Source of the DNA: Gelidibacter salicanalis
GTDB lineage: Bacteria > Bacteroidota > Bacteroidia > Flavobacteriales > Flavobacteriaceae
DNA length: 49,720 nucleotides
Assembly (NCBI RefSeq): GCF_016469035.1
Contig: NZ_JAEHJZ010000066.1
Location: forward strand, 1 to 49,720
Direction of reading: 5' to 3'
Under the pieces are notes generated by a model that saw only the letters and a list, made by a program, of their open reading frames with translations, was not told the origin of the DNA and made no database searches. This document shows, one piece after another, positions 9-44,828 of this stretch. The position numbers were made by a program, and so were the translations under genes. Each line of letters begins with the position of its first letter. Position 1 is the first letter of the stretch.

Positions 9-1904
9 TCATGTACTAAAAGCATTTTTATATAATTCCGCGCTCTTGCTTTCTTTTTTCAAATTGTATTCTGGAGAATACCACGCATCACTCAATTTTA
101 TATCTAATTCTTTTATGGGTTGAATTCTCAAATTATTTTCAGGGTAAGTCGTCGTTATGCCATCATCTGCAACTTCAATCTGTTCGTTTGGGAAATTAAA
201 ATATTGTGAGAATTTATGTTCGCCATGGGTTGAAAAGCTATCAAAAACCAACCAAACATTCGGTTTTAAGAACAACAGTCTTCTTTTTATAGCTACAGGA
301 TCTTCTAAGCGTTGATAAGCGGTGTTTTCGGCTTCGGCATAATCAAAATCGGTAGTAAGGTTTGTGTAAATCCCTTCTGACCGTGCTTCAAAGGTATTCA
401 TCCAAGAATCTTTGTACATCGAATTGGGCAAATCATCAACGCCTAAAGTATTATGACTTTTATTGCCTTTAAATAGTTCTCGCCAGTCATTATCCACATA
501 AGAGTAGCGTCCACTATCCACCAAATAATCTCTGTTATTTGCAAAAATTGAAAAATGCAATAAATTGTCATGGCCGTGTCCCCCTCCTAAACGTTTCATA
601 TGAAAGCTTGAGTAAGTGGCATCTTGTTCCCAAGACGTTCTCATATAAACATCTCCTGAACTTTCTTGAAAAACAGATAAAAATTCAGGTGTTTTGCTCT
701 TTAAATTTTTATAGTTTGCAGCATTTTGACTTCCTAACAAAAAGAAAGTTTCATAGTCCAACTCAGGAAAAGCTCGCGATTTTAACGTAGGATCTGAAAA
801 CAGATGCGCAGCTAGCGTCAGTATTCCACGTAAATCAGTATCATCACTATCACCTAAAAGTGGCTGATGAAAATTGGGTTTTTGCCACTCGACATTAGCA
901 TAAGCCATGTCTTTTGTTTTCTGTACAATGGTTTCAGGCAATTCGATACCCTTTTGTTGCGCTAACAAATTCACGTTCATATAACAATGAAACACCTCAT
1001 TATGATACATGGGAGACTGCTCCCATTGGGTGCCGTCAGGCAAGATTTGTAAATCAATACAAGTAGTTAAATTAGCTAAAGCATCATCCTGCCATTTCTG
1101 AGCATCTTTAAATTCGGTTAAAAACTGAGAGGCATTAAAAACGCCCTGAAACTCTAAAACTCCCCAATTGCTGGTTTTTGAAAAATTATTAAAATCGCTA
1201 TTGATGTAAGTGGCGTGCTCGTGTAAACTATTTAAATATTTAGCCAAAAACTCTGGTGTCACGTGTTTTGAATGCTTAATAAACTCAAAAGCTTTTATCC
1301 AATTTTCAATCCGAATCCCCGCTTCTATGCGTCGCCATGACAATCTTTTAAGCTCCTCTTTTATCGGATTATTATCAATCCAATGGGTGGCCTGATCTAC
1401 AAAACCTTTGGCATATTTTTCTTTTCCTGTTAGCATGTATGCTTTACCTAAATCGACCCAATAGCGGTGCCTGTTCAGCATATAACACCATTCTTCATCA
1501 CCGTTTGGGATTGCCTTCCAATCGATTTCGCCCTTAAATTGATGCGGAATATTGGTTTTTTCCATATCCCAATCATATCGAAATAAAAAATACTTATCCA
1601 ACACTTGATCTGCAACTTCTATGGTGGTGGCGACATCTTTTGGATAGGTACTTTTAATGAATGCCACGTCATCTTTATCCACTTGCAAATAGAGATTTTC
1701 TTTGGCTCTATAAATTTTTAATAACTCCTTTAAAGCAGCATTCTTAGAGTTAGATGCCGTTAAGCTTTCAATAGTTTTTAATTCCGATTGTTGATAGTCG
1801 AGTTTATCGAAAAGATTGAGCGCGGTATTTTGCGCTGTAATTGTACAGAAGGAAATAAGAAAAAGGAGATAAATTGTGTTCTGTTTTAAGATTCTTGTTG
1901 ACAT
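9..1904 (-). CDS. Heparinase II/III-fold polysaccharide lyase (PL12-like)
   Basis: Predicted secreted uronic-acid polysaccharide lyase that would cleave a glycosaminoglycan-type chain by beta-elimination and leave an unsaturated uronate end. The N-terminus is a signal peptide (LLFLISFCTITAQ). The first ~380 residues form an alpha-helical toroid of the heparinase II/III N-terminal type, with NWGVLEFQG near residue 246 and MYHNEVF near 300. The C-terminal beta-sandwich carries GGGHGHDNLLHFS near 440, followed by DYLVDSGRYSY, a signature of heparinase II/III C-terminal domains. The 631-residue length fits PL12 heparinase III enzymes, but PL33 and other families share this architecture, so the family and substrate are uncertain. 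It lies 34 bases downstream of a sulfatase and is probably co-transcribed with it. The start is the ATG just before the signal peptide; the stop is inside the window. Confidence 0.8.
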   Translation of the reverse strand: MSTRILKQNTIYLLFLISFCTITAQNTALNLFDKLDYQQSELKTIESLTASNSKNAALKELLKIYRAKENLYLQVDKDDVAFIKSTYPKDVATTIEVADQVLDKYFLFRYDWDMEKTNIPHQFKGEIDWKAIPNGDEEWCYMLNRHRYWVDLGKAYMLTGKEKYAKGFVDQATHWIDNNPIKEELKRLSWRRIEAGIRIENWIKAFEFIKHSKHVTPEFLAKYLNSLHEHATYINSDFNNFSKTSNWGVLEFQGVFNASQFLTEFKDAQKWQDDALANLTTCIDLQILPDGTQWEQSPMYHNEVFHCYMNVNLLAQQKGIELPETIVQKTKDMAYANVEWQKPNFHQPLLGDSDDTDLRGILTLAAHLFSDPTLKSRAFPELDYETFFLLGSQNAANYKNLKSKTPEFLSVFQESSGDVYMRTSWEQDATYSSFHMKRLGGGHGHDNLLHFSIFANNRDYLVDSGRYSYVDNDWRELFKGNKSHNTLGVDDLPNSMYKDSWMNTFEARSEGIYTNLTTDFDYAEAENTAYQRLEDPVAIKRRLLFLKPNVWLVFDSFSTHGEHKFSQYFNFPNEQIEVADDGITTTYPENNLRIQPIKELDIKLSDAWYSPEYNLKKESKSAELYKNAFST

Positions 1905-1938
1905 AAATTATATTGTTTTATTCACTTTAATTGCTCTG

Positions 1939-3423
1939 CTACTTATTAAAAAGGCCTGTATCACCTTTATTCAATAAAGGCACTAATTTTTGTACGATTT
2001 CTGGATGATCATTAGCAATATTTTGAGTTTCAGGAGCGTCGGAAGTATGATCATACAACTCATACTCCTGTGTTTTGTCTGCCCTAAAATATGTTGTAAG
2101 ACGATACTTTTCAGTTCGTAAGGACATCCCATCGTTAAAATAACTATAAGCAACCGATTCTGTTAGTGGCATTGGGTCGCCGTGCAATAGTGGTACAAAA
2201 CTTTTGCCATCTGTTTTATGTGGCATATTCACATTACAAAGCTCCATTAAGGTCGGATAGATATCTACAGTTTCAACAATGGTCGATGATTTCTTATTTT
2301 TGATTCTTGTACCAGGGACTTTAATAATCAGCGCACTTTTTAAAGCATTTTCGAATAGTGTATGTTTGCCCCAAACTTTTTGATCACCTAAATGCCAGCC
2401 GTGGTCACCCCAAACCACCACAATGGTATTTTCCTCCAAATCCAGTGCTTTTAGTTCGCTTAAAATCATCCCAATTTGATGGTCAATATAGCTTACACTA
2501 GCATAATACGCATGTCTTAATTTTTTAGCATATGCATCTGACACCCGATTTTCACGATTAGGTATCTCATCGGTACGTGTGTATTGATTAAATTCATTGC
2601 TATCATGTAGACTTTCGCGATTGCTATTTTGTGGAATTTCAGGATATGGAGAGATTGAAATAGCGTCATTTTGGTATAAATCCCAATATTTTTCTGGTGA
2701 ATTAAAAGGTAAATGCGGTTTAAAAAATCCGACACCGAGAAAAAATGGCTTGTTCTGATTCTTAAGTTCTTTTAATTTAGAAATAGCCAATTGTGTCGTT
2801 AAGCCATCTGGATATCCCAAATCATCAACTTTTCCTGCTTCATAAGGTTTTACTTTGTTATGTAAACTCTGTCTGTTTTCTCCATTTGCGTAACCGAAAA
2901 AAGCATTCCAGCCCGTACCCCATTTGCCACTATCAAATAATAATTCGCTCCAGCTGTACGGCAGCTCTCTTTTATCAGATGGTTTTTCATTATAGTCAGA
3001 TAGAAGCCCGTCGGCAGAATGACTTATTTTACCAATACCCACGGTATGGTACCCATTTCGTTTTAAGTGATGAATGAAGGATTCAGGATTGGCACGCTCT
3101 GGTTGATTGGAGATTTCGTTGTAAATAACTTCATTACTGAGTTGCGCTTTGGTTTTTGGACGCATTCCAGTCAAAAGATTATATCGTGATGCCCCACAGG
3201 TTGGTACTTGAACAAAATGATTTGTAAAGGTAACCCCTTCCGAAGCTAATTTATCTATATGTGGCGATTGTACAATTGTATTGCCATAACACCCTAGATC
3301 CGGGCGTAAATCATCAACGGCTATAAACAAAATATTTGGATGTGAAGTGTTTTCCTTTTTTTCCTGACCACATCCACTAAAGTTTAACATGAGAAAGGAA
3401 TACATGATGGCTATAAATCGCAT
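1939..3423 (-). CDS. S1-family sulfatase lipoprotein, iduronate-2-sulfatase-like
   Basis: Formylglycine-dependent sulfatase predicted to remove sulfate esters from the PUL substrate in the periplasm or at a membrane surface. A lipobox (LNFSGC) is followed by ILFIAVDDLRPDLGCYG, the metal-binding N-terminal strand typical of iduronate-2-sulfatase-like members. The formylglycine motif is CGASR near residue 76, with alanine in place of the usual proline; CxASR variants occur in the family. Later motifs are VGIGKISHS, GVGFFKPHLPF and VVVWGDHGWHLGDQ with metal and catalytic residues. The length of 494 is normal. A specificity for 2-O-sulfated uronate is suggested only by overall resemblance. It is first in a two-gene unit with the lyase downstream and is divergent from the GH88 gene at 4043. 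Confidence 0.88.
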   Translation of the reverse strand: MRFIAIMYSFLMLNFSGCGQEKKENTSHPNILFIAVDDLRPDLGCYGNTIVQSPHIDKLASEGVTFTNHFVQVPTCGASRYNLLTGMRPKTKAQLSNEVIYNEISNQPERANPESFIHHLKRNGYHTVGIGKISHSADGLLSDYNEKPSDKRELPYSWSELLFDSGKWGTGWNAFFGYANGENRQSLHNKVKPYEAGKVDDLGYPDGLTTQLAISKLKELKNQNKPFFLGVGFFKPHLPFNSPEKYWDLYQNDAISISPYPEIPQNSNRESLHDSNEFNQYTRTDEIPNRENRVSDAYAKKLRHAYYASVSYIDHQIGMILSELKALDLEENTIVVVWGDHGWHLGDQKVWGKHTLFENALKSALIIKVPGTRIKNKKSSTIVETVDIYPTLMELCNVNMPHKTDGKSFVPLLHGDPMPLTESVAYSYFNDGMSLRTEKYRLTTYFRADKTQEYELYDHTSDAPETQNIANDHPEIVQKLVPLLNKGDTGLFNK

Positions 3424-4042: not shown

Positions 4043-5245
4043 ATGAAACTATTTAAAATTATTATGCTATTACAAGTATTTACTCTTTTCTATACTTGTT
4101 CTCCTGCCCGTCTAAAAAACAAGGAAAACTTTACAGAGCAACAGTTGAGTAATGCCAATAAACAAATTTCACTATTACTGAATGCTGCAATGGAAGCAAA
4201 CAGAATTCCGAGAACCATTGACGAAAATGGTAATCTGCAATTCACTAATTTGGGTTTCGATTGGACTGAAGGGTTTTTTCCAGGAACATGTTGGTATTTG
4301 TATGGAGTTACCAAAGATGAGAAATGGAAGCTTGCAGCTGAAAAATTTCAAGCACAATATGAAAATCATAAGTATAGAACAATATCCCATGATTTAGGTT
4401 TTATATTTAACAACTCCTACGGGAATGGATATAAATTAACTAAAAACGAAGACTTCAAGAAAGTTTTGACAACTGCTGGAGATTCATTAATTACTAGGTT
4501 TAATCCCATTGTTGGTAGCCTGCTAAGTTGGAATGTTGATAATGGATGGCAGTCTAAAAGAGGCTGGAAATTTCCTGTGATCATTGATAACATGATGAAT
4601 TTGGAAATGCTTTTTGAACTGTCTGAATTGACAGGTGATGACAAATACAAGAAAGTGGCAATTGCTCATGCAAATACGACATTAAAAAATCATTTTAGAG
4701 AAGATAATAGTTCATATCATGTAGTTGATTACGATCCAGAAACGGGAGACGTTAGAAGTAAACAAACAGCACAAGGATTTTCAGATGAAAGCGCATGGGC
4801 ACGTGGACAAGCTTGGGGGGTTTACGGTTATACAATGTGTTATCGTTTTACTAAAGATGAAAAATATTTAGAGCAAGCTCAAAAAATTGCTGACTATATT
4901 ATACATTATAAAGGTACTCCAGAAGATGGCATACCATATTGGGATTACAACGATGCCAAAATTCCAAACAGCCATCGCGATGCTTCTGCTGCGGCAATAA
5001 CAGTTTCAGCTCTAATTGAATTAAATGACTATACTAATGGAAAATATGAAACGGCTGTTGATAAAATTTTAGGCTCATTGGCTTCAAAAGAATACACTGC
5101 AAAATTAGGAGAAAATAAAAATTTCATATTAAAGCATAGTGTTGGCAGTATTCCTCATAATAATGAAATTGATGTACCTCTAAACTATGCCGATTATTAC
5201 TACCTTGAAGCATTAATTAGATATAAAAAATACACATCTAAATAG
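4043..5245 (+). CDS. GH88 unsaturated glucuronyl hydrolase lipoprotein
   Basis: Predicted to hydrolyse the 4,5-unsaturated uronic acid from the non-reducing end of lyase products, giving 4-deoxy-5-keto-uronate that feeds KduI/KduD. Lipobox FTLFYTC suggests membrane anchoring, probably facing the periplasm. The alpha6/alpha6-barrel motifs of GH88 are all present: LGFDWTEGFFPGTCWYLYG near residue 70, HDLGFIFNNSYGNGY near 115, VIIDNMMNLEMLF near 180, SDESAWARGQAWGVYGY near 245, and SHRDASAAAI near 310. The acidic residues in the HDLGF and IDNMMN motifs correspond to the two conserved aspartates of this family. The length of 400 is typical. It is a single-gene plus-strand unit, with a candidate HTCS site upstream. 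A second GH88 lies at 20649-21917, and the two may differ in sulfation tolerance. Confidence 0.92.
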   Translation: MKLFKIIMLLQVFTLFYTCSPARLKNKENFTEQQLSNANKQISLLLNAAMEANRIPRTIDENGNLQFTNLGFDWTEGFFPGTCWYLYGVTKDEKWKLAAEKFQAQYENHKYRTISHDLGFIFNNSYGNGYKLTKNEDFKKVLTTAGDSLITRFNPIVGSLLSWNVDNGWQSKRGWKFPVIIDNMMNLEMLFELSELTGDDKYKKVAIAHANTTLKNHFREDNSSYHVVDYDPETGDVRSKQTAQGFSDESAWARGQAWGVYGYTMCYRFTKDEKYLEQAQKIADYIIHYKGTPEDGIPYWDYNDAKIPNSHRDASAAAITVSALIELNDYTNGKYETAVDKILGSLASKEYTAKLGENKNFILKHSVGSIPHNNEIDVPLNYADYYYLEALIRYKKYTSK

Positions 5246-5478
5246 TTAGTCAGGCTATACTGTAATTAATTAATGGTCCTGTCCTATACATTAACTCTGT
5301 ATTCTTGGGTAATCCTTATAAAAACGATTTACAGTCCACATCCATTTAAGTTAAGGTCTTTAAAATACGTATCGTTACTATAGGTTAAGTAAGGTTGGTT
5401 AGGATTAATTCTAAACACTTTGAAATATGCGAAAAACACCTTAAAATATCTACTTTAAGAGGGTTATAAAAATCAAGA

Positions 5479-5501
5479 ACCTCGGGGCAAGCCCCCGAGG
5501 T
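5479..5501. repeat. GC-rich inverted repeat (REP-like hairpin)
   Basis: A perfect 9-bp inverted repeat, acctcgggg and ccccgaggt, separated by five bases. Weaker related hairpins (gaggcaagcctc, ccctcaatgaggg) follow within 70 bases and share the CTCGGGG/GAGGC core. The clustering suggests a dispersed intergenic palindromic repeat rather than a terminator, since no T-run follows. Confidence 0.55.
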
Positions 5502-5878: not shown

Positions 5879-5893
5879 CGCAAAATTTCGACA

Positions 5894-5911: not shown

Positions 5912-5941
5912 GAAAATCACGATTCTTTAGCCTTCAGCAAT

Positions 5942-6594: not shown

Positions 6595-7269
6595 CTATAT
6601 TTTTCTGACTTCAAAACTCTCGATTTTCATGTGATTGTTTACCGTTCTAAATCCAAAATATCCCTGTGCATAAGGTTCAGCATCTTCAACTTTATAGATG
6701 ACTTCGCCATCTCTAGAATAACTTGTAAAATTATCTTTTACAATAATTTCGATATGCATTTTTTTATTGGCAGTAATCATAAATTGCTTATCAGACAAAT
6801 CATGTTCGGGTAATAACGGCCGATCTACATTACCATTATACCGTCTAAATCTTGTTTTTGAATTATGATGCCCACCATAACCTACGTAGTAGCCAGTAAA
6901 ATGATGGTAATTAGGAAAATGCCCCGCTCTTTCAACTGAGCCTTTGAAAAAATCATCAGGGTGTTTTGGATCATTAGACATCCAAAGACAATTCATATCT
7001 GAAACTCTGTCGTAAGCACCACCGTCATCAATAATTGTAATATCGTAAGCTATTTTTACAGGGGCTTCTAACGCATTTTTAAACCAAATGGTACAGCCTT
7101 TGGCATCAATTACTTCTATGCCTTGTTCGGTAAAAAGTGTCTGCCCATTTGGCTGCTGTTCTATCACCCAGTTATTTACATCCTTTAGGACGTTTTTATA
7201 GAGTAACCCTTGGGTTTTACAACCGCAAAATACTAAAAGAAAAATAATGAAAGTTGCGTTTTTAAACAT
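6595..7269 (-). CDS. Lipoprotein with concanavalin-like jelly-roll domain (DUF6250/DUF1961-like)
   Basis: A 224-residue lipoprotein (lipobox LVFCGC) whose remaining ~200 residues look like a single jelly-roll beta-sandwich. Features include W-rich segments (NWVIEQQPNG, CTIWFKNALE, NCLWMSNDPKHPDDFF), GHFPNYHHFTGYYVGYGGHHNSKTRFRR, and a closing YAQGYFGFRTVNNHMKIESFEVRKI typical of this fold. The family resembles DUF1961/DUF6250 proteins found in carbohydrate-degradation loci, where roles as glycan binding or glycan-cleaving enzymes have been considered. The conserved histidines and the GGHHNSKTRFRR patch would suit a catalytic or binding groove. It is the last gene of the minus-strand run, 77 bases after the sulfatase. 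I cannot assign a reaction. Confidence 0.6.
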   Translation of the reverse strand: MFKNATFIIFLLVFCGCKTQGLLYKNVLKDVNNWVIEQQPNGQTLFTEQGIEVIDAKGCTIWFKNALEAPVKIAYDITIIDDGGAYDRVSDMNCLWMSNDPKHPDDFFKGSVERAGHFPNYHHFTGYYVGYGGHHNSKTRFRRYNGNVDRPLLPEHDLSDKQFMITANKKMHIEIIVKDNFTSYSRDGEVIYKVEDAEPYAQGYFGFRTVNNHMKIESFEVRKI

Positions 7270-8942: not shown

Positions 8943-8958
8943 AATAATGATTATTTAT

Positions 8959-21917: not shown

Positions 21918-22375
21918 TAGTTTAAGTTTAAATTGATGTCTATTTATCAATATGAGATGTTGATCAAAGAAAAGATCTTTTAGGGTAAAAGGAGCGGGAT
22001 AGGTGGTCATTATGGGGGCATCTTTTGATCAAAAGACCTACTTCTACCGCTCTTCTTATATTTATATGATTGAATTTCAATAGCTTACTAAATAGGCCTT
22101 TTGATATTTTCAGGATACAAGCTTTACATTATATAATATTTTTACGAATCGATTACTTCAATCAAAATGCTTGTAGATCTCTTTTTTTAGTGTCTAAATC
22201 GGATAAAATACCTGATTGCACGTTGTAGTTCTGGACAATTCTATTGTTTCTAACCTAAGTTCCAAATTGGTTCGTAATCATATAAAAAAATCCCCGAACC
22301 AAGTACGTTTAATTGTATAGGTCGGGGATTATAGTGCTAATAATCAAAGGGTTATTTCAACTGATACAGCTAATT
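21918..22375. promoter_or_regulatory. Promoter region of the ten-gene run and terminator of the Sus1 unit
   Basis: This roughly 450-base spacer separates susC1-susD1-DUF5017 from the enzyme run. It contains a perfect 16-bp palindrome tcttttgatcaaaaga at 22021-22036, a second TTGATCAA at 21960-21967, and the intrinsic terminator at 22281-22330. The HTCS block seen before both susC genes is not present here. I could not fix a -7 box. No gene was recognised. Confidence 0.5.
22281..22330 (-). terminator. Intrinsic terminator of the susC1-susD1-lipoprotein unit
   Basis: On the minus strand, AATCCCCGA pairs with TCGGGGATT (stem arms at 22322-22330 and 22289-22297, extended by a further GG/CC with one bulge) and is followed directly by TTTTTTT. 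The loop is about 20 bases. It lies 46 bases beyond the stop of the DUF5017-type gene and in the correct orientation to end that operon. Confidence 0.8.
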
Positions 22376-23314: not shown

Positions 23315-23346
23315 TTTGTCTATTTTTTTAAAATTATTAGTACTTA

Positions 23347-36518: not shown

Positions 36519-39500
36519 TTAGGGTTGATCTTCAGTAGTATCGCTAAAATCTGGTGTGTTTTTAGTGCGGTAATCTGATGGTAACTCATCAAATAATTTT
36601 TGGAAAGATTTTCTAAAATGTTTTAAGTCATTAAACCCAAGATCATAGGCAATTTCTGAGATATTGAGCTGGGTCTGTAGTATGAGTTGCCCTGCTCGTT
36701 TCAATTTTATAGTTCTGATAAATTCAGTTATGGATTGATCCGTCAATGCTTTTAATTTGCGATATAACGCAGAGCGACTCATGCCCATTTCATCTACAAA
36801 ATCAGTAATGGCATAATCTGAATCGTTAATATGGGCTTCAATTAATCCGATCGCTTTTTGCAAAAAGACCTCATCTTGAGAGACAACATCAGGCACAGAA
36901 GGTTGAAGAATGAGATCCTTTTTAAATTTCTCTATCAGTCTTTTTCTGGTTTGTAATAAATTATTAACCCTCATCTCTAACACGTTGGCATTAAAGGGTT
37001 TGGTAATGTAGGCATCCGCACCGGTTTGAAAACCTTGTTTCTGGGCAGCTTCTGATGTTTTAGCAGTTAATAACAACACCGGAATATGACTGGTTAAAAT
37101 ATTCGTTTTGATATGCTGACATAACTCAATACCGTCCATCTTTGGCATCATCACATCACTGATAATAAGGTCTACTTTATGATTGTTTGCAATTTCGATG
37201 GCCATTTCGCCGTGTTCGGCTTCAAAAATTTCGTAATCAGTTTCAAAAATCGATTTGATGAATAAGCGTACTTCAATATTATCCTCAACGATTAAAATTG
37301 TGACATCTGAGGTGTTTTCAGGGCGTTCTTCCACATCTTCATCATGCTCTTCAGCAGTCATTTCCTTAATCATGTAATTTGGACTGCTAAAGTAGAATGC
37401 CCCAGAAGTGGCATCAGTTTCCTGAATGATGTCCATGTCTGATAAATGCTGATCTCCCAATGGTAATAAGGCAATAAATGTAGTGCCATCGCCTTTGTTA
37501 CGCTTCGCTTTAATTTGGCCCTTATGCAATTCAACAATACTCTTAGTTAAGGCCAAACCAATACCCGTTCCTGACCGGGTGGTATCATCTTGTCCTAATT
37601 GGTAGAATCTGTCAAAGATAAATTTAAGATCTTCTTTAGGAACACCCCTCCCACTATCTTTAACTTCTAGCCTCAAGAATTCCGTAAACATGAGTTTACG
37701 CTTGTTTTTAGTCACTTTAGAAAGATGAATGGATATTTTCCCGCCCTCCGGTGTGAATTTAAATGCATTGGACAAGAGATTGTAAATGACCTTTTTTAAA
37801 TTGATTTTATCAAACCAAAGTTCAATGGTATCATCTTCAGAATGAAATTGAAAATCAATGTTTCTAAGTCGTGCCACTTCATCAAAGGACACCTTAGTAT
37901 GTTCAATAAACGGCACAATATTACTTTTGGATGCTGCCAACTTAAGATGACCAGATTCGCTCTTTCTAAAATCTAAGAGTTGGTTGATCAGTTGTAGCAA
38001 CACACTTGCATTTCTATGCATAATTTCATGTTGCCTTTGAATGTAGTCCGTCCCAATATTTTTATGTAACATGCGCTCCAATGGCCCAATAATTAAAGTC
38101 AATGGTGTACGGAAATCGTGAGAAACGTTGGTAAACAAACGCAATTTCATCTGATTGATCTCTTCTAAACGTTCTTTCTCTAAACGCTCCTGCTTAAGTT
38201 CATTTTTCTCATGGATTCTTAACAGACTATATTTTCGGAACAAGTAAAGAGCAGTTGCAATCAGCAGGCCATATATAACATACGCCCACCAGGTTACCCA
38301 CGGTGCTGCCTCTATGGTCAAATTCATTGAAGCGCCTTCCTCATTCCAAATGCCATCACTGTTGGAAGCTTTAACTCTAAAGGTGTAATCTCCAGAATTT
38401 AAGTTAGTATACGTGGCTGATTTATTATTACCAATAGTAATCCAATCGTCATCAAAGCCTTCAAGTTTATAGGCATATTGATTTTTATTAGATTGCGAAT
38501 AGCTCAACGCTACAAAATTAAAACTCACTATATTTTGATCATGACTAAGGGTTACGGGGCCTTCCTCATTCCCATTAATTAAATATGGTTTGTTATTCAC
38601 CCAAAACGAGGTTATAGATACAGGCGGAATAAAGGCATTCTCAATAATATCATTGGGGTTGAAATATGTAATACCATTTGCGCCACCAAATATCAAATCG
38701 CCATTTTTAAGTTTTTTAAACGCACCATAATTGAATTCGTTTCCCACTAAGCCATCAGAGACATCATAATTGGTAAAGGTTTTAAAAGCCAAATCAAAAC
38801 GACTCAATCCGTTGTTGGTACTGAGCCAAACCGTATTAAAGTCGTCAGGAAGAATGCCATAAATGACCTCATTAGGCAGGCCGTCAGACATCCCATATTT
38901 TGTGCTTTGCTGACTTTGATTATTATAATGGTATAAACCGTCACCTTCAGTGGCTATCCATAAATTCTCACGTGGATCTTCATAAGCATATAATGTGGCA
39001 TGGCTATGCCCAGACTGATCAGCATTTATTTTATAAGGTATCCGTGTTAATTGATGCGTGATAATATTTACTTTTGCCAAGCCGCTATTACTGGAAATAA
39101 GCAAACTATTTTTATTAGCCATGGGCGTAATGGCGTAAATAATTGAACCTATCTGATGTAATGAATCTGTAATTCTGACCATAGATTGAATATCGTGCCG
39201 CCATTTATTCAATCCGCCACCTGAGGTTCCAATCCAAATATCCTGACGTGCATCTTCAAATAATGAAATGATGCGATTGCTACTTATGGTAGTGTTGTCC
39301 GATGGATCGTGATTAAATTTCTTAAAACTGAAAGGTTTTGATGAAGAATTTAAAACATTAAGTCCACCATCATGGGTGCCTATCCAATATTTCCCATCAC
39401 TCGCCCTAATCATGGCTTTTACGTTATCTGTACTTAAACTTTTTGAATCGTCGTTACTGTGTGTATAGTATGAAAATCGGCCTTCAGCATTGTTATAGAT

Positions 39501-40679
39501 ATTGATTCCGCCACCTTCCGTAGCAATCCATAAATTTTGTTTAGAATCTTCTATAATAGCACTGACTACTTTATAATTCAACTTGGAGTTATTTGTACCG
39601 GCTGTAAAACTTTTAAACACATCATAACTTCTATCATAGTAATTGACACCACCCGCATAGGTACCAATCCAGAAATCGCCTTTAATATCTTCGATGAATG
39701 TGTAAATAGAATTTTGACTTAAACTGGTTCTGTCATTTTCATCGTGGAGATAATGGACCACCTTGTTACTATCCTTATAGATTACAAATAATCCATTATA
39801 CGTTCCAACCCATAGATTCTGGTCTTTATCCTGATATATGATCCTCACTTCGTCAGTAATTGGCGGAGTGCTTTGACCTTCTAAGGTGTGGATTTTAAAC
39901 GTGTCTGAGGAATTATCGAAGCGGTATAACCCATTCTTATACCCTAACCAAACTTGTTTTTGCTCATTTTCATAGATGACGGGTGCATAATTCCTGTTGC
40001 CTTCTGTAATATCTCCTTGTGGGTATTTGTACGCTTTATATGTTTGGGATGTAGGATTGTAAACCATAATCGCGGTGGCGGTGCAAATCCACAAATTTCC
40101 ATCTGTAGTTTTAAGTAATGAGCGCACTTGATAATTAGGGTAATCCCTTTGATTGTCTCCTATTAATACGGCTACGCTTTTTAAAGTTTGCGGATTAAAT
40201 TGCTTCAGTCCCACATTTGTGCCCAGCCATAATGAGCCATCTGCCGTGGCTTCCATATCCCAAATTTCAGTAGTAGAACTATTGCCTTGGTTGTCCGATG
40301 GCAAAAAACGCATAAATCTATTCTCATTAGGAATAAATTTATTCAGTCCGTTCATTGTACCAATCCATAAATTGCCATGCTGATCTTCAATGAGCGATTT
40401 AATATAACTATTACTAATTGACGTACTATCTTGGGAATTGTGTCTATAAGTGACAAATTTTTGACCATCAAATTTATTGAGACCATCTCGAGTACCAAAC
40501 CACATAAAGCCTTTACTATCTTGAAGAATGCAAAGTACTGAACTTTGTGACAGCCCTTCAGTAAGCGAATATTGCTTAAACTTTAATTTTTGATTGTCAT
40601 TTAAAATGCTTTGACCAAAACTTAAACAGTTAGTTATTAAAAAAATAAAAATCAGCAGTTTTTTGTGGATGAGCATCAT
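36519..40679 (-). CDS. Hybrid two-component system sensor/regulator (HTCS)
   Basis: Single-polypeptide sensor and transcription activator of 1386 residues that likely senses an oligosaccharide in the periplasm and activates the susC promoters. It has a signal peptide (FIFLITNCLSFGQ). About 14 Reg_prop beta-propeller repeats follow (GFMWFGTRDGLNKFDG, GNLWIGTMNGLNKF, QNLWIATEGGGINIY, residues ~40-700), then a Y_Y_Y domain (YAYKLEGFDDDWITIGN, ~715-785) and one membrane segment near 793-813. The histidine kinase contains FTNVSHDFRTPLTL with the phospho-acceptor His near 852 and an ATPase domain (GRGVPKEDLKFIFDRFYQ, GTGIGLALTKSIVE). The receiver contains ILIVEDNIEVR and ISDVMMPKMDG with Asp near 1175. 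An AraC-type HTH ends the protein (ISEIAYDLGFNDLKHFRKSFQKLF). It lies 38 bases downstream of lacI on the same strand. Confidence 0.95.
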   Translation of the reverse strand: MMLIHKKLLIFIFLITNCLSFGQSILNDNQKLKFKQYSLTEGLSQSSVLCILQDSKGFMWFGTRDGLNKFDGQKFVTYRHNSQDSTSISNSYIKSLIEDQHGNLWIGTMNGLNKFIPNENRFMRFLPSDNQGNSSTTEIWDMEATADGSLWLGTNVGLKQFNPQTLKSVAVLIGDNQRDYPNYQVRSLLKTTDGNLWICTATAIMVYNPTSQTYKAYKYPQGDITEGNRNYAPVIYENEQKQVWLGYKNGLYRFDNSSDTFKIHTLEGQSTPPITDEVRIIYQDKDQNLWVGTYNGLFVIYKDSNKVVHYLHDENDRTSLSQNSIYTFIEDIKGDFWIGTYAGGVNYYDRSYDVFKSFTAGTNNSKLNYKVVSAIIEDSKQNLWIATEGGGINIYNNAEGRFSYYTHSNDDSKSLSTDNVKAMIRASDGKYWIGTHDGGLNVLNSSSKPFSFKKFNHDPSDNTTISSNRIISLFEDARQDIWIGTSGGGLNKWRHDIQSMVRITDSLHQIGSIIYAITPMANKNSLLISSNSGLAKVNIITHQLTRIPYKINADQSGHSHATLYAYEDPRENLWIATEGDGLYHYNNQSQQSTKYGMSDGLPNEVIYGILPDDFNTVWLSTNNGLSRFDLAFKTFTNYDVSDGLVGNEFNYGAFKKLKNGDLIFGGANGITYFNPNDIIENAFIPPVSITSFWVNNKPYLINGNEEGPVTLSHDQNIVSFNFVALSYSQSNKNQYAYKLEGFDDDWITIGNNKSATYTNLNSGDYTFRVKASNSDGIWNEEGASMNLTIEAAPWVTWWAYVIYGLLIATALYLFRKYSLLRIHEKNELKQERLEKERLEEINQMKLRLFTNVSHDFRTPLTLIIGPLERMLHKNIGTDYIQRQHEIMHRNASVLLQLINQLLDFRKSESGHLKLAASKSNIVPFIEHTKVSFDEVARLRNIDFQFHSEDDTIELWFDKINLKKVIYNLLSNAFKFTPEGGKISIHLSKVTKNKRKLMFTEFLRLEVKDSGRGVPKEDLKFIFDRFYQLGQDDTTRSGTGIGLALTKSIVELHKGQIKAKRNKGDGTTFIALLPLGDQHLSDMDIIQETDATSGAFYFSSPNYMIKEMTAEEHDEDVEERPENTSDVTILIVEDNIEVRLFIKSIFETDYEIFEAEHGEMAIEIANNHKVDLIISDVMMPKMDGIELCQHIKTNILTSHIPVLLLTAKTSEAAQKQGFQTGADAYITKPFNANVLEMRVNNLLQTRKRLIEKFKKDLILQPSVPDVVSQDEVFLQKAIGLIEAHINDSDYAITDFVDEMGMSRSALYRKLKALTDQSITEFIRTIKLKRAGQLILQTQLNISEIAYDLGFNDLKHFRKSFQKLFDELPSDYRTKNTPDFSDTTEDQP

Positions 40680-40717: not shown

Positions 40718-41755
40718 TTAATCTTTTGGTTGTTTTCCTTTTTGAGAAGAGTTTCGCTCTATCAAATTCGCATGGATTATAATATGTTCATTGGTTGTAT
40801 GTTTAGTGCCATTTTTAATTTGCGACACCAGCAATTCTGTAGCACTTCTACCGATGTCGAATCCAGGTTGGTTGATGGTTGTCAACGAAGGCTCAATAAT
40901 AGCAGAAATTGTTTCATTACTAAAACCGACCACCGCAATATCTTTAGGCACCGTAATACCCTCCCTCTTTAACTGTTGCATGGCACTAATGGCCGCCACA
41001 TCATTAGCAGAAAAAATACCATCCACCCTAAAAGATAAGGCAAGCATTTTGTTGACATTATCTATCCCATCCTGTTCCATCAATCGCGAACTAAATAGCA
41101 GCGCATCATTAAAATCAAGATTATGTTTTGACAATGCTGCTTTATAACCTTCAAATCTATTTTTGTAAATCTCCAAATGAAGAGGTCCCGAAAAATGTGC
41201 AATACTTTGACATCCTTTAATAATTAAATGCTCAGTAGCATCAAATCCTGCTTTAAAATCATCAATAAGCACACTACTTGTCTCCGGAATATTACAATGA
41301 CGGTCAAAAAATACAAAAGGAATTTTTCGCTGTTTTAAGCCTTCAAAATGATCGTAATTTTCAGTCTCCATTGAGATCGATACCAACACACCATCTACTC
41401 TATTGGCTAATAAGGTATTAATATTACTTTGCTCCCGCTCTAATAGCTCTAGCGATTGACAGATGATAACATTAAAACCTAATTTATAGGCTGTTTCCTC
41501 AATGCCTGCAATGGCCGAAGAAAAGAAATGTCTGGAAATTCGAGGTACAATAACCCCTAAGGTATTGGTTTTATTCAGCCTTAAGTTTGAGGCCAAGTGA
41601 TTGCGTTGATATCCCAATTCATTGGCCTTGGCAATAATTCTATTCTTTGTCTTCTCTGTAACACGTGGACTGTTATTAAGCGCCCTAGAAACAGTAGAAC
41701 TATCAATATTCAATAGTTTAGCGATGTCGTGAATCGTAATTTTATCAGAGTCCAT
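40718..41755 (-). CDS. LacI-family transcriptional regulator
   Basis: DNA-binding regulator of 345 residues. The N-terminal HTH is TIHDIAKLLNIDSSTVSRALNN (residues ~7-28), followed by the hinge RVTEKTKNRIIAKANELGYQRNHLASNLR. The periplasmic-binding-type effector domain starts at NTLGVIVPRISRHFFSSAIAGIEE and ends with VVGFSNETISAIIEPSLTTINQPGFDIG. It is divergent from kduI across a 235-base region that contains a perfect 28-bp palindrome, so repression of kduI-kduD-DUF4861 and of itself is likely. The effector is probably a pathway intermediate such as a keto-deoxyuronate; this is inference. HTCS follows on the same strand, suggesting linked expression of the two regulators. Confidence 0.93.
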   Translation of the reverse strand: MDSDKITIHDIAKLLNIDSSTVSRALNNSPRVTEKTKNRIIAKANELGYQRNHLASNLRLNKTNTLGVIVPRISRHFFSSAIAGIEETAYKLGFNVIICQSLELLEREQSNINTLLANRVDGVLVSISMETENYDHFEGLKQRKIPFVFFDRHCNIPETSSVLIDDFKAGFDATEHLIIKGCQSIAHFSGPLHLEIYKNRFEGYKAALSKHNLDFNDALLFSSRLMEQDGIDNVNKMLALSFRVDGIFSANDVAAISAMQQLKREGITVPKDIAVVGFSNETISAIIEPSLTTINQPGFDIGRSATELLVSQIKNGTKHTTNEHIIIHANLIERNSSQKGKQPKD

Positions 41756-41899: not shown

Positions 41900-41927
41900 A
41901 TAAAAATACAATCGATTGTATTTTTAT
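41900..41927. promoter_or_regulatory. Perfect 28-bp palindrome, candidate LacI operator
   Basis: A perfect inverted repeat centred on ATC|GAT at 41913/41914, with inner sequence AATACAATCGATTGTATT. A central CG in an even palindrome is typical of LacI-family operators. It lies between divergent lacI and kduI, next to -7-like boxes on both sides (TATATTTG at 41889-41896 on the minus strand, TACTTTTA at 41933-41940 on the plus strand), where binding would block both promoters. Confidence 0.75.
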
Positions 41928-41990
41928 TTTATTACTTTTACATCTCTAATAGATAGAGTTATAAATATTATTCATCAAAAACGCTACACC

Positions 41991-42833
41991 ATGAAAACGA
42001 CCTATGACGTGAGATATGCATCTTCTCCGAACGATGTAAAAACATATGATACTGAAAAACTACGTAATGAATTTTTGATAGATTCACTAATGAAACCGGA
42101 CGCCATCCATTTTGTTTACACCCATTATGACCGCTATATGGCAGGAAGCGCGGTACCCACCACTACGTCTTTAAAGTTAGAAACGGTGGATGCTTTAAAA
42201 TCTGAGTTCTTTTTAGAACGCCGAGAATTGGGGATAATTAATGTTGGAGATCAAGGCACCGTCACTGTAGATGGAACTGATTATGTATTAGACCACAAAG
42301 AAGCACTTTATGTTGGACAAGGCAACAAAGACGTTGTTTTTAAAAGTACGTCTAAAGACAAACCAGCAAAATTTTATTTGAATTCTGCACCGGCACACAA
42401 AGCATTCCCAACCAAGAAAATTGGCGCTGATGATGTGGAGGTGATTGAATTAGGCGCTCCTGAGACTGCAAACGCCAGAACCTTAAGAAAATATATTGTA
42501 AACAGCGTTGTTGATGTCTGCCAATTACAAATGGGAATGACAACGCTTAAACCAGGGAGTTCTTGGAATACGATGCCGGCTCACGTACATGACCGCCGTA
42601 TGGAAGTCTATTTCTATTTTGAAATTCCCGAAGATCAAGCGGTGTGTCATTTTATGGGACAACCACAGGAAACAAGACATATTTGGATGGCTAATAACCA
42701 AGCTGTCATTTCACCACCATGGTCTATCCATTCAGGTTCAGGTACCAGTAGCTATACATTTATCTGGGGAATGTCAGGTGAAAATTTAGATTATGGCGAT
42801 ATGGACCATTGTAAAATAAACGAATTAAGATAA
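41991..42833 (+). CDS. kduI: 5-keto-4-deoxyuronate isomerase
   Basis: Predicted 4-deoxy-L-threo-5-hexosulose-uronate ketol-isomerase, converting the unsaturated uronate opened to its keto form into 3-deoxy-D-glycero-2,5-hexodiulosonate in the cytoplasm. The cupin metal ligands are visible: MPAHVHDRRMEVYFYF gives H-x-H and Glu, and PPWSIHSGSGT the later His. About 280 residues from the ATG at 41991 fits the family length. An upstream in-frame ATG at 41916 lies inside the operator palindrome and is rejected as a start. No signal peptide, as expected. First gene of a three-gene plus-strand unit under the candidate LacI operator; it takes the product of the GH88 enzymes. Confidence 0.95.
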   Translation: MKTTYDVRYASSPNDVKTYDTEKLRNEFLIDSLMKPDAIHFVYTHYDRYMAGSAVPTTTSLKLETVDALKSEFFLERRELGIINVGDQGTVTVDGTDYVLDHKEALYVGQGNKDVVFKSTSKDKPAKFYLNSAPAHKAFPTKKIGADDVEVIELGAPETANARTLRKYIVNSVVDVCQLQMGMTTLKPGSSWNTMPAHVHDRRMEVYFYFEIPEDQAVCHFMGQPQETRHIWMANNQAVISPPWSIHSGSGTSSYTFIWGMSGENLDYGDMDHCKINELR

Positions 42834-42851
42834 ACTTAAAACAACATAACT

Positions 42852-43643
42852 ATGTCAACTAAATTGTTTGATTTAACAGGAAAAGTAGCTTTGGTAACTG
42901 GTGCCGTTCACGGTCTTGGAATGGCCATGGCTAAAGGATTAGGTAATGCGGGTGCCACTATTGTGGTAAACAACCATTCTGAAGATTCTTTGGAAAGCGC
43001 GGTGAAAGAATACAAAGACTCGGGTTTAAACGCCTATGGTTACGTGTTTGACGTGACTGATACTGATGCCGTAGAAGCTGCCATCAAAAAAATTGAAGCT
43101 GAAGTTGGCCCAATTGATATCTTGGTAAATAATGCCGGAATTATTAAAAGAACCCCCATTATTGAAATGGAAACGGCCGATTTTGAGCAGGTCATTAAAG
43201 TGGACCTTGTAGGCCCTTTTATTGTCTCAAAATTTGTTGCTAAGAGTATGATTAACAGAGGTGGCGGAAAAATTATCAACATCTGCTCTATGATGAGCGA
43301 ATTAGGAAGAGATTCTGTAAGTGCTTATGCTGCTGCTAAAGGCGGACTAAAAATGCTTACAAAAAGTATGGCTACAGAATGGGCGCGCTATAATATTCAA
43401 ACTAACGGCATTGGTCCTGGTTATTTTGCAACCACGCAAACAGAACCTATCCGTGTAGATGGACATCCATTTAACGACTTTATTATCGGCAGAACACCAG
43501 CAGGACGTTGGGGAAATCCAGAAGATTTGCAAGGTACTGCTGTCTTTTTAGCATCAAAGGCTAGTGATTTTGTTAATGGTCACGTGGTTTATGTGGATGG
43601 CGGAATTTTAGCGACTATAGGTAAACCTTCTAACGAAAATTAA
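42852..43643 (+). CDS. kduD: 2-deoxy-D-gluconate 3-dehydrogenase (KduD-type SDR)
   Basis: Short-chain dehydrogenase of 263 residues, predicted to reduce 3-deoxy-D-glycero-2,5-hexodiulosonate to 2-keto-3-deoxygluconate with NAD(P)H. TGAVHGLGMAMAKGLG near residue 17 is the nucleotide-binding TGxxxGxG motif, NNAG lies near 95, and the catalytic Ser plus YAAAK near 157-161. ICSMMSELGRDSVSAYAAAK is typical of KduD. It begins 18 bases after kduI. KDG kinase and KDPG aldolase, the next steps, are not in the window and must lie elsewhere. Confidence 0.93.
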   Translation: MSTKLFDLTGKVALVTGAVHGLGMAMAKGLGNAGATIVVNNHSEDSLESAVKEYKDSGLNAYGYVFDVTDTDAVEAAIKKIEAEVGPIDILVNNAGIIKRTPIIEMETADFEQVIKVDLVGPFIVSKFVAKSMINRGGGKIINICSMMSELGRDSVSAYAAAKGGLKMLTKSMATEWARYNIQTNGIGPGYFATTQTEPIRVDGHPFNDFIIGRTPAGRWGNPEDLQGTAVFLASKASDFVNGHVVYVDGGILATIGKPSNEN

Positions 43644-43649
43644 TTTATA

Positions 43650-44828
43650 ATGATGATACACCTTCGTAATTTTGCAGTGTGCCTTGCAGTCTTTGGCATG
43701 TTGTCTGCTTGCACTGAGCAAGAGAAAGCTAAATCCATTACCGTAAAAAATGATTTGGACACACCACGTTCATTTGAAACGGTTGAACTGACCAAAGACT
43801 TTTTAAAAGTTGATGATCTTTCAAATATCGGAATTAAAAATAGCGAGACACAAGAACTTTTGGTCACGCAATCCATTGATACGGACGGTGACGGTAATTT
43901 AGATCTAATCATATTTCAACCTGAAATTGCAGCCAATAGTTCTCAAACTTTTGAAATTGTAAGCGTCACTGATGCTGAACGACCTGAAGCTAAAGCGCTG
44001 TGTTATTCTCGCTTTGTACCAGAACGTACCGATGATTACACTTGGGAAAACGATAAAGTAGCCTTTAGAGTATATGGACCTGTTGCCCAAAAAATGATTG
44101 AAGACAGCATTCCCGGAGGCACACTCTCTAGCGGCGTTGATGCTTGGTTAAAGCGTGTAGATTACCCCATTATTGATAAATGGTACAAAAAAACTACGGA
44201 TGGTACAGGAAGCTACCACGAAGATACTGGCGAGGGTCTTGACAACTTTCATGTAGGTCCAAGTCGTGGCGTTGGTGGTATTGCTGTTAAAGTTGATTCG
44301 GCATACTATCTTTCTAGAAATTATACGCAATGGCGTACCATCACTACAGGCCCACTAAGAACCAGTTTTTATTTAGAATATGCCAATTGGGATGCCGCCG
44401 GAAACACTATTAAGGAATCTAAGGTTGTGAGTTTAGATTTGGGTCAGAATTTTTCGAAATTTGACACCCATATAGAAGGCACGGAGACCATTTCAGCAGG
44501 CTTGACGTTACACGAAAAAGATGGTGATGTTAGTGGCAGTAAGGATAATGGCTGGGTAAGTTATTGGCAGCCAATTGCAGATACTGAAATAGGAACCGCT
44601 ATTGTAGCACCGTCAAAGTATTTTATTGATTACGAAACTTATGACACTGAGGTGACGGATTTAAGTAATGCTTATGCACACCTTAAAGTTATTGACAATA
44701 AGGTGATTTATTATGCTGGCTTTGCTTGGAAAAAATCAGAACAATTTCCAACAAGAGCGTTATGGGAAGCACATTTGAATAGCTTTGCACAAAAAATAAA
44801 TACGCCTTTAACAGTAACTTTAGACTAA
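43650..44828 (+). CDS. DUF4861 lipoprotein
   Basis: A 392-residue lipoprotein (lipobox GMLSAC) of the DUF4861 family, without known reaction. Recognised by KSITVKNDLDTPRSFETVEL at the start, FRVYGPVAQ and SSGVDAWLKRVDYPIIDKWY in the middle, and NFHVGPSRGVGGIAVKVDSAYYLSRNY followed by a W-rich C-terminal half. The predicted fold is all beta. It starts six bases after kduD and shares its transcription unit, so it is expressed with uronate catabolism although it is exported. DUF4861 genes recur in marine PULs for uronate-containing polysaccharides such as ulvan and alginate; a lyase, esterase or sugar-binding role is possible. No catalytic motif was recognised. Confidence 0.85.
   Translation: MMIHLRNFAVCLAVFGMLSACTEQEKAKSITVKNDLDTPRSFETVELTKDFLKVDDLSNIGIKNSETQELLVTQSIDTDGDGNLDLIIFQPEIAANSSQTFEIVSVTDAERPEAKALCYSRFVPERTDDYTWENDKVAFRVYGPVAQKMIEDSIPGGTLSSGVDAWLKRVDYPIIDKWYKKTTDGTGSYHEDTGEGLDNFHVGPSRGVGGIAVKVDSAYYLSRNYTQWRTITTGPLRTSFYLEYANWDAAGNTIKESKVVSLDLGQNFSKFDTHIEGTETISAGLTLHEKDGDVSGSKDNGWVSYWQPIADTEIGTAIVAPSKYFIDYETYDTEVTDLSNAYAHLKVIDNKVIYYAGFAWKKSEQFPTRALWEAHLNSFAQKINTPLTVTLD

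What the first reader, a model, noticed from the sequence alone, without database searches (positions are those of the whole stretch)
9..44828. Candidate PUL for a fucose-branched sulfated chondroitin
Seen: PL8 chondroitinase-type lyase, a heparinase-fold lyase, a beta-helix protein, four S1 sulfatases, two GH88 enzymes and KduI/KduD, together with two GH29 alpha-L-fucosidase-type genes inside the same minus-strand run. Known: chondroitin and dermatan PULs carry lyases, sulfatases and GH88 but normally no fucosidases; sea-cucumber fucosylated chondroitin sulfate has a chondroitin backbone with sulfated fucose branches on the uronate. Inference: this locus may break down that polymer, with sulfatases and GH29 exposing the backbone for PL8. 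KDG kinase/aldolase and fucose catabolism genes are absent here.
Basis: partly seen in the sequence, partly recalled or inferred. Interest (0 to 1): 0.82.

Follow-up and report, generated by a model that had tools for sequence, protein, structure and literature searches.

The report
Chondroitin-eating gene cluster with fucosidases
A flavobacterium carries a gene cluster for eating chondroitin sulfate, the sugar polymer of animal cartilage, with two extra enzymes that probably strip off fucose side branches; close copies in some other bacteria sit beside genes for eating fucose, which supports the idea that the real food is a fucose-decorated chondroitin.

Summary
The window (one whole contig) carries a chondroitin/dermatan sulfate utilization locus: PL8 with the chondroitinase-ABC catalytic motifs, a PL29/BT3328-like beta-helix protein, S1_15-, S1_27- and S1_9-type sulfatases, GH88, KduI, two SusC/D pairs and a hybrid regulator. 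Two GH29 fucosidases sit inside the operon. A sister species has the same core without them. Close GH29b relatives (73-82%) lie beside PL8 in three named genomes (Lutibacter MAG, Polaribacter IC073, Flavobacterium weaverense) out of 80 GH29 loci from one scan. In two of them an L-fucose catabolic operon, holding that genome's only recognised L-fucose dehydrogenase, is embedded in the chondroitin locus. The window's genome has this operon on another contig. So 'fucose-branched chondroitin' is well supported by genomics. 'Sea-cucumber sulfated fucose' is not specifically supported: 13 of 15 sulfatases of the four GH29b loci have counterparts in PL8 loci without GH29b, and none is shared by these loci alone, so unsulfated fucose branches (king-crab chondroitin K type) fit as well. 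SusC1/D1 and the FG-GAP protein resemble loci without recognised sulfatases and are not fucose-linked. New variant of a known kind; enzyme activity is untested.

The parts
9..1904 (-). Hepar_II/III-fold polysaccharide lyase, not an HepC equivalog
   Evidence: Pfam 219 bits; HepC model 203 bits versus cut-off 700; PDB best 4mmi/4mmh heparinase III 138 bits; 68-75% homologues in the PL8 loci LUT, POL, G201, 64-69% in G182, G335, G201
1939..3423 (-). S1 sulfatase S1a, S1_7-like, C-G-A-S-R active site; target unknown
   Evidence: PDB best 6hhm 237 bits, iduronate-2-sulfatase 192 bits; relatives of 53-66% in 31 other genomes of 349, none at the PL8 orthologues; best 28-34% in the three GH29b-bearing relatives; no match of 45% in 18 other PL8 loci
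4043..5245 (+). GH88 unsaturated uronyl hydrolase (GH88a)
   Evidence: Pfam 41 bits over cut-off; 61-69% homologues in SusC1/D1-type loci G080, G244, G312, but also 57-83% in several PL8 loci
6595..7269 (-). DUF6250 protein of the chondroitin locus
   Evidence: Pfam 212 bits; matched in 13 of 18 other PL8 loci
7347..8942 (-). S1_15-type sulfatase S1b, GalNAc-6-O-sulfatase relative
   Evidence: PDB best 6s20 N-acetylgalactosamine-6-O-sulfatase 631 bits; C-T-P-S-R
8959..10449 (-). S1_9-type sulfatase S1c, probable delta4,5-hexuronate-2-O-sulfatase
   Evidence: PDB best 5g2t 2-O-GAG sulfatase 168 bits; published signature regions present, deviating at two strongly conserved and several weaker positions
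10543..11973 (-). GH29a alpha-L-fucosidase with signal-like N-terminus
   Evidence: Pfam 295 bits; best PDB 9s0x 304 bits; 77-79% orthologues in POL and LUT
12195..14129 (-). GH29b alpha-L-fucosidase, lipoprotein-like N-terminus
   Evidence: Pfam 280 bits; PDB/Foldseek best 7db5; the three orthologues of 73-82% are in PL8 loci, the 61% one is not
14160..15887 (-). beta-helix lipoprotein-like protein related to PL29 endo-lyase BT3328, lacking its N-terminal 300 residues
   Evidence: NF058554 316.7 bits, profile 300-838; DUF4955
15969..19046 (-). PL8 chondroitin ABC-type lyase
   Evidence: 1hn0/7eip 374 bits, catalytic-site motifs aligned
19107..20633 (-). S1_27-type sulfatase S1d, GalNAc-4-O-sulfatase relative
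   Evidence: PDB 2qzu 376 bits (putative sulfatase), 6j66 CS/DS 4-O-endosulfatase 360, 6s21 endo-4-O-sulfatase 333
20649..22010 (-). GH88-like unsaturated uronyl hydrolase (GH88b)
   Evidence: Pfam 23.3 bits, under cut-off; 70-83% matches in 11 of 18 other PL8 loci
22376..25005 (-). DUF5017 surface-protein candidate and SusD2
   Evidence: collinear in G006, POL, LUT
25018..28212 (-). SusC2, TonB-linked importer of the chondroitin core
   Evidence: TIGR04056 912 bits
28389..36336 (-). FG-GAP/UnbV protein, SusD1 and SusC1: second importer set
   Evidence: the three together in G080, G244, G312 loci with HTCS and GH88 and without recognised sulfatase; no FG-GAP match in 18 other PL8 loci
36519..40679 (-). 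hybrid two-component system regulator (HTCS)
   Evidence: Reg_prop, Y_Y_Y, HisKA, HATPase, receiver and AraC-type domains
40718..41755 (-). LacI-family regulator
41916..44828 (+). KduI, SDR (KduD/gluconate 5-dehydrogenase type) and DUF4861 (BT3233 family): uronate catabolism
   Evidence: NF002091 447 bits, NF005488 450 bits, NF058564 408 bits, all over cut-off

Best explanation
This is a polysaccharide utilization locus for a chondroitin/dermatan-type glycosaminoglycan that bears alpha-L-fucose branches. The polymer is bound and cut at the cell surface (DUF5017 protein, PL29-like lipoprotein, SusC2/D2) and imported. GH29a and GH29b remove fucose from the glucuronate (inferred: alpha-1,3 on GlcA O-3), which unblocks the chain for the PL8 lyase. 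S1_27-, S1_15- and S1_9-type sulfatases remove 4-, 6- and 2-O-sulfate, GH88 splits the unsaturated disaccharide, and KduI/SDR feed the uronate into metabolism. Released L-fucose goes to the oxidative fucose operon on contig C284. Shown by sequence: enzyme families, motifs, gene order, co-conservation, existence of the fucose operon. Inferred: the linkage, that fucose sits on the chondroitin, the order of steps and cell location. The fucose is probably unsulfated or sparsely sulfated; a sulfated branch is not excluded.
For: Core matches the published B. theta CS/DS/HA gene set. Sister species G006: same core, PL29-like directly followed by S1c, no GH29 at the site; none of 9 congeners has a GH29b orthologue, best 41%. 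One scan with GH29b of a collection of 84,980 species: 198 relatives, best 80 kept; PL8 in the fetched flanks in 3 of 80, exactly those of 73% identity or more; the fourth (61%) and the other 76 (45% or less) have none. GH29a is beside GH29b in two of these three (77-79%); the third has a 52% relative in an adjoining cluster. The four PL8-linked GH29b form one clade (SH-aLRT 99), the three PL8-linked GH29a another (85) (quick method). L-fucose operon inside the locus in Polaribacter and F. weaverense, L-fucose dehydrogenase with one match in each of these genomes; 0 of 15 PL8 loci without GH29b have it, Fisher p = 0.035 without phylogenetic control. Croceivirga L169: GH29a relative (64%) with S1_27-like sulfatase, Hepar_II/III-domain protein, GH88, GH20 and divergent fucose isomerase, FGGY kinase and class II aldolase. 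Published: fucose branches block chondroitinases (PMC3917272 passages).
Against: No activity data. The fucose operon is in 2 of 4 GH29b loci, not in the window; no L-fucose dehydrogenase match in the Lutibacter MAG. The host has three more GH29 genes and two sulfatases on contig C434, so its C284 operon is not specific to this locus, and congener G006 and G201 have the operon away from PL8 without a GH29 pair there. GH29a's closest relatives outside (66-70%) lie in loci with GH115, GH92 and GH3, a different glycan. GH29 subfamilies do not predict linkage reliably (PMC10154630 passages). GH29b also occurs without PL8 in TAE3-ERU29. Only four loci carry the association.
Confidence: 0.68

Rival explanations
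1. Substrate is specifically sea-cucumber fucosylated chondroitin sulfate with sulfated fucose; the S1_7-like sulfatase S1a or sulfatases elsewhere in the genome desulfate fucose before GH29 acts. (A narrower form of the best explanation.)
For: Extra sulfatase S1a in the window; 25 sulfatase matches in the genome, four of them in the window; sea-cucumber polymer carries sulfated Fuc on GlcA O-3 and some GlcA-3S (PMC3917272 passages).
Against: S1a is not close in the three relatives (best 28-34%), and its 31 relatives of 53-66% do not lie at PL8 orthologues. Of 15 sulfatases in the four GH29b loci, 13 have a 45% or closer match in PL8 loci without GH29b; the two that do not (S1a, one in F. weaverense) are each in one locus only. 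S1c scored 145 bits against 6hr5 (recalled as S1_25) but 168 against the S1_9 structure.
Confidence: 0.25
2. Substrate is a chondroitin with unsulfated fucose branches such as king-crab chondroitin sulfate K or another marine invertebrate chondroitin. (A narrower form of the best explanation.)
For: No sulfatase goes with the GH29 pair; chondroitin K contains Fuc(alpha1-3)GlcA (title of Kitagawa 1997 seen in the reference list of PMC6696379).
Against: No direct evidence of which animal or polymer; sulfatases elsewhere in the genome could act on fucose.
Confidence: 0.35
3. Ordinary chondroitin locus; the GH29s trim fucose from glycoproteins, keratan sulfate or linkage regions of the same animal tissue.
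For: GH29-A enzymes have relaxed linkage specificity (PMC10154630 passages); proteoglycans carry other fucosylated glycans (recalled).
Against: No Pfam match to GH20, GH16, GH18, GH85 or a beta-galactosidase among the 27 window proteins scanned; fucose operons embedded next to PL8 suggest bulk fucose.
Confidence: 0.17
4. Substrate is a bacterial glycosaminoglycan-like exopolymer containing fucose and glucuronate, not an animal polymer.
For: Bacteria making sulfated GAG-like exopolymers are reported (PMC7356697 passages); GH29a relatives lie in GH115 loci.
Against: S1_15/S1_27/S1_9 types plus cABC-type PL8 are the toolkit for animal CS/DS.
Confidence: 0.1
5. Chance neighbourhood: unrelated loci merged, GH29 not acting on the chondroitin.
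For: The window is a mosaic; SusC1/D1 and FG-GAP resemble another locus type.
Against: GH29b kept beside PL8 in four genera or more, GH29a in three.
Confidence: 0.08

Closest known systems
Bacteroides thetaiotaomicron PUL CS/DS/HA (BT3324-BT3350; PMC6994673, part 1 of 3 of the Results read)
   Same: PL8, PL29, S1_15 6-O-sulfatase, S1_27 4-O-sulfatase, GH88, SusC/D, HTCS; an S1_9 2-O-sulfatase and PL33 are co-regulated from elsewhere there
   Different: Here an S1_9-type sulfatase, a heparinase-fold lyase and KduI/SDR are inside the locus, there are two SusC/D pairs, and two GH29 fucosidases are added
Sister-species locus G006:C5 (43-96% identical core)
   Same: Collinear core from DUF4861 to S1_15
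   Different: No GH29a/GH29b, SusC1/D1 or FG-GAP gene at the corresponding places; its contig ends soon after, so downstream genes cannot be judged
Polaribacter sp. IC073 (L200+L105+L201) and Lutibacter MAG (L199+L104+L198) loci
   Same: PL8, PL29-like, GH29b, GH29a, S1c, S1_15 in this order
   Different: Additional AC-type PL8 and small ORFs between, further PL8 upstream (with a T9SS tail in Polaribacter); Polaribacter has the fucose operon inside the locus; Lutibacter lacks a close S1d
Fucoidan loci with GH29/GH95 and S1_17/S1_25 (Wenyingzhuangia fucanilytica; passages of PMC12786026)
   Same: GH29 fucosidases with S1 sulfatases
   Different: No GH95/GH141-type or other fucanase recognised here; lyases and GAG sulfatases instead

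Membership tests
Chondroitin/dermatan sulfate PUL | PL8 lyase with catalytic His, Tyr, Arg, Glu | tested here: met
   374 bits to chondroitin ABC lyase I; motifs HHNGHYPAY, AGRHPL, VWASEIY aligned (residue roles recalled)
Chondroitin/dermatan sulfate PUL | S1_15 6-O- and S1_27 4-O-GalNAc sulfatases | tested here: met
   631 bits to 6s20; 360/333 bits to 6j66/6s21; subfamily by structure relatives and PMC6460246/PMC6994673, SulfAtlas itself not available
Chondroitin/dermatan sulfate PUL | S1_9 delta-hexuronate-2-O-sulfatase signatures | tested here: met
   signature regions of PMC6460246 found in S1c; strict patterns A and D matched, B, C and E only in loosened form or by eye, deviating at L432 and G440 (published 99% and 92% conserved) and several weaker positions; pattern A also matched S1b
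Chondroitin/dermatan sulfate PUL | PL29 surface endo-lyase | tested here: inconclusive
   related to BT3328 family, 316.7 bits versus cut-off 1100, N-terminal third missing
Chondroitin/dermatan sulfate PUL | SusC/D pair, HTCS, GH88 | tested here: met
   GH88a over, GH88b under the Pfam cut-off
Fucosylated-chondroitin PUL (proposed) | GH29 fucosidases consistently linked to PL8 locus | tested here: met
   window plus 3 of 80 GH29b-homologue loci; 0 of 15 other PL8 loci have GH29a/b orthologues, one has a 38% GH29 on the other strand
Fucosylated-chondroitin PUL (proposed) | fucose catabolism linked to the locus | tested here: inconclusive
   inside the locus in 2 of 4 GH29b loci, elsewhere in the window's genome, no L-fucose dehydrogenase match in the Lutibacter MAG
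Fucosylated-chondroitin PUL (proposed) | sulfatase for sulfated fucose gained with GH29 | tested here: inconclusive
   none shared by GH29b loci alone; S1a has an unknown target
Fucosylated-chondroitin PUL (proposed) | GH29 releases fucose from fucosylated chondroitin | not testable with these tools
   needs enzyme assay
Fucoidan PUL | GH95/GH107/GH141/GH168 or S1_17/S1_22/S1_25 enzymes | tested here: not met
   27 window proteins scanned, all fall in other families; whether Pfam covers each of these GH families was not checked
Heparan sulfate PUL | HepC-type lyase over cut-off | tested here: not met
   203 bits versus 700

The most novel reading that the evidence does not exclude
GH29a and GH29b represent two new specificities: alpha-L-fucosidases that remove fucose from glucuronate of a glycosaminoglycan. 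Together with PL8 they form a transferable module for fucose-branched chondroitin found in several flavobacterial genera, in some of which the fucose catabolic operon has been drawn into the same locus; the Croceivirga locus would be an independent solution with the isomerase/kinase/aldolase pathway.
Probability: 0.45. Interest if true: 0.76.

Novelty: new variant of a known kind. Interest (0 to 1): 0.62.

Why it matters
Fucose branches shield chondroitin from chondroitinases (PMC3917272 passages). In the open-licence library I found no characterised fucosidase shown to remove that branch and no gene-resolved locus for this polymer (searches; subscription papers not held). Statements there conflict: one review says a GH95 alpha-1,2-fucosidase of Bacteroides acts on such polymers and that gut bacteria ferment it (PMC11545675 passages), another that intestinal bacterial enzymes do not digest it (PMC7345195 passages). 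If true, this gives named relatives (two of the three are not labelled MAGs) and two enzyme clades for controlled defucosylation of an anticoagulant polymer, and tells how marine bacteria recycle invertebrate tissue.

Tried and rejected
Linking SusC1/D1 and FG-GAP to fucose: rejected, their relatives lie in loci without GH29. GH88a is not specific either: it occurs in both locus types. Linking S1a to fucose: no support. Heparan sulfate: rejected. Net charge of GH29a as a sign of a sulfated substrate: no pattern, -13 to +9. Residues L71, R74, P76, W77, Q167, A179, T184, W185 are shared by the three PL8-locus GH29a and Croceivirga but not by the GH115-locus clade: a lead only. AlphaFold model of GH29b: mean pLDDT 67, gives a GH29 fold with 7db5-like architecture, no substrate information. 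Habitats: the paper search gave three papers naming F. weaverense, listing only, and nothing on IC073 or TAE3-ERU29. PMC12313589 names two PULs for 'fucosylated chondroitin sulfate (FCSP)', but its main text holds no GH29, PL8 or fucose and cites Sichert et al. 2020 (recalled as a fucoidan study) for it, so I read this as an acronym mix-up, not prior art; this is my inference.

Limits of the counts: the 349-genome searches scored only the best 2-4 candidates per genome, so weaker second copies may be missed; the GH29b scan needs exact short peptide patterns and kept 80 of 198; many of the 80 loci are shorter than 20 kb; the PL8 loci read are 30-78 kb long and some are cut by contig ends; two of the 15 come from one genome (G012). 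The Fisher test rests on 2 of 4 versus 0 of 15 and ignores relatedness. The tree is a quick one with long branches.
Full report
What is in the window. The window is contig C618 of a 5.16 Mb genome in 682 contigs. Its family is very likely Flavobacteriaceae: two same-family genomes, G389 and G387, have contigs of the same lengths as records of Mariniflexile and Jejuia (inference). From 9 to 44,828 it holds one catabolic locus: Hepar_II/III lyase, S1_7-like sulfatase, GH88a(+), an unrelated DUF2179 gene(+), DUF6250, S1_15, S1_9-type, GH29a, GH29b, PL29-like, PL8, S1_27-type, GH88b, DUF5017, SusD2/SusC2, FG-GAP/UnbV, SusD1/SusC1, HTCS, LacI(-), then KduI, SDR and DUF4861(+). Gaps between the genes from PL8 to DUF6250 are 16-221 bases (coordinates). 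The right end (45,240-49,678) holds proline dehydrogenase, amidohydrolase and S10 peptidase genes, not part of the locus.

Chondroitin toolkit. PL8 matches chondroitin ABC lyase I over nearly its whole length (374 bits) with the catalytic motifs preserved (the roles of these residues are recalled). S1b gives 631 bits to the GalNAc-6-O-sulfatase 6s20, S1d 360 bits to the CS/DS 4-O-endosulfatase 6j66, S1c 168 bits to the 2-O-GAG sulfatase 5g2t and shows the published delta-hexuronate-2-O-sulfatase signature regions with some deviations. The beta-helix protein is a shortened relative of BT3328. This is the kind of enzyme set of the B. thetaiotaomicron CS/DS/HA locus, where the 2-O-sulfatase and PL33 sit elsewhere (PMC6994673, part of Results read).

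The fucosidases. GH29a is nearest to 9s0x and GH29b to 7db5 among solved structures; entries that I recall as GH29-B score far lower, which suggests GH29-A. The WFD aspartate and the KHH histidines are invariant among orthologues. GH29a has a signal-like N-terminus, GH29b a lipobox-like cysteine (localisation is inferred).

The GH29 pair is an addition to a conserved core. In congener G006 the core is collinear at 43-96% identity, but PL29-like is followed after 2 bases by S1c, without GH29. None of nine congeners has a GH29b orthologue (best 41%). In 349 genomes of the family, 14 have a PL8 orthologue of 47% or more, the window included. I read 15 other PL8 loci (the 13 other genomes, one with two loci, plus G006): none has a GH29a/b orthologue, and for the fucose operon only cross-matches of 26-29% appear; one, G188, has a divergent GH29 (38%) with two sulfatases on the opposite strand next to its PL8 locus.

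The pair recurs with PL8. One scan with GH29b of a collection of 84,980 species gave 198 relatives, of which the best 80 were kept. Four are 61-82% identical, the other 76 at most 45%. A PL8 match (tblastn E at most 1e-15) lies in the fetched flanks in 3 of 80: F. weaverense (80%), Lutibacter MAG (82%), Polaribacter IC073 (73%); the fourth, TAE3-ERU29 (61%), has none. Lutibacter and Polaribacter repeat PL8, PL29-like, GH29b, small ORFs, GH29a, an AC-type PL8, S1c, S1_15. F. weaverense has PL8 then GH29b, and a 52% GH29a relative in an adjoining cluster with GH88, PL29-like and S1_27-like genes. A tree of 40 GH29 proteins puts the four PL8-linked GH29b in one clade (SH-aLRT 99, quick method) and the three PL8-linked GH29a in another (85), sister to GH29a relatives from loci with GH115, GH92 and GH3 (one of those six loci, G401, was annotated with Pfam, the others read by gene order).

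Fucose catabolism. In Polaribacter, between DUF6250 and the heparinase-fold lyase, and in F. weaverense, between GH29b and DUF6250, lies an operon with an enolase-superfamily dehydratase, SDR, 2,4-didehydro-3-deoxy-rhamnonate-type hydrolase (348 bits, cut-off 500), L-fuconolactonase relative (281 bits, cut-off 400), L-fucose dehydrogenase (403 bits, cut-off 300), FucP (510 bits, cut-off 280), mutarotase and L-lactate dehydrogenase relative (298 bits, cut-off 376); in Polaribacter a third GH29 with F5/8 domains and a phosphodiesterase-like protein lie among them (scores are for Polaribacter). The dehydrogenase model has one match in each of these genomes, the one in the locus. It has one match in the window's genome, on C284, where the same eight genes stand with an AraC-type regulator; one each in G006 and G201, also away from PL8; none in G012, G022 and the Lutibacter MAG. 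Thus 'fucose catabolism absent' applies to the window only, and having the operon somewhere is not specific to GH29 loci; its place inside the locus is. That difference is 2 of 4 versus 0 of 15 (p = 0.035, relatedness ignored). A separate case, Croceivirga L169, pairs a GH29a relative with S1_27-like and other sulfatases, a Hepar_II/III-domain protein, GH88, GH20 and a divergent fucose isomerase, FGGY kinase and class II aldolase.

Which fucosylated chondroitin. Sea-cucumber polymer has sulfated fucose on GlcA O-3, which hinders chondroitinases until removed (PMC3917272 passages). King-crab chondroitin K has Fuc(alpha1-3)GlcA (title of Kitagawa 1997 in the reference list of PMC6696379). Of 15 sulfatases taken from the window, Lutibacter, Polaribacter and F. 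weaverense loci, 13 have a match of 45% or more in the 15 PL8 loci without GH29b; the other two (S1a, and one of F. weaverense) are each in one locus only. S1a is otherwise widespread away from PL8. So the genomes do not point to sulfated fucose, but 25 sulfatase matches in the host genome leave it possible.

Mosaic. SusD1 has 79% and 73% relatives in G201 and G022, PL8-bearing loci without GH29; SusC1, SusD1 and FG-GAP occur together in G080, G244 and G312 beside HTCS and GH88, with PL29-like genes in G080 and G312 and KduI in G080 and G244, and no match to the window's sulfatases in the 40 kb read, probably for hyaluronan or unsulfated chondroitin (inference). The window thus joins two importers and a fucosidase module.

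Verdict. A chondroitin/dermatan sulfate locus (high confidence) adapted to fucose-branched chondroitin (0.68); the animal source and fucose sulfation are open. No enzyme was assayed here.

Noticed in passing
L169 (Croceivirga MAG) 277-17398: GH29a relative with sulfatases, GH20, Hepar_II/III-domain protein, GH88 and a divergent fucose isomerase/kinase/aldolase operon: candidate independent fucose-glycosaminoglycan locus
   Followed up: partly
L230 9479-15269 (G188): Opposite-strand cluster of two S1 sulfatases and a divergent GH29 abutting a chondroitin PL8 locus; might serve sulfated fucose branches
   Followed up: partly
L080-L091 (G401, G389, G011, G387, G188, G274): Conserved locus with several GH29 and SusC/D in six genera (GH115, GH92 and GH3 identified in G401); substrate unclear
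   Followed up: partly
L106 (Weeksellaceae TAE3-ERU29) 9878-11764: GH29b relative (61%) without any match to other window genes in the 20 kb held
   Followed up: no
window 28389-31757: FG-GAP/UnbV protein tied to SusC1/D1 in loci without recognised sulfatases; possible surface glycan-binding protein
   Followed up: partly
L104 11932-14551 and L105 11887-13567: ORF of 377-379 residues (T9SS tail in Polaribacter, no other Pfam match) and a small ORF between GH29b and GH29a; the larger is also in GH29-free G201 (62%)
   Followed up: partly
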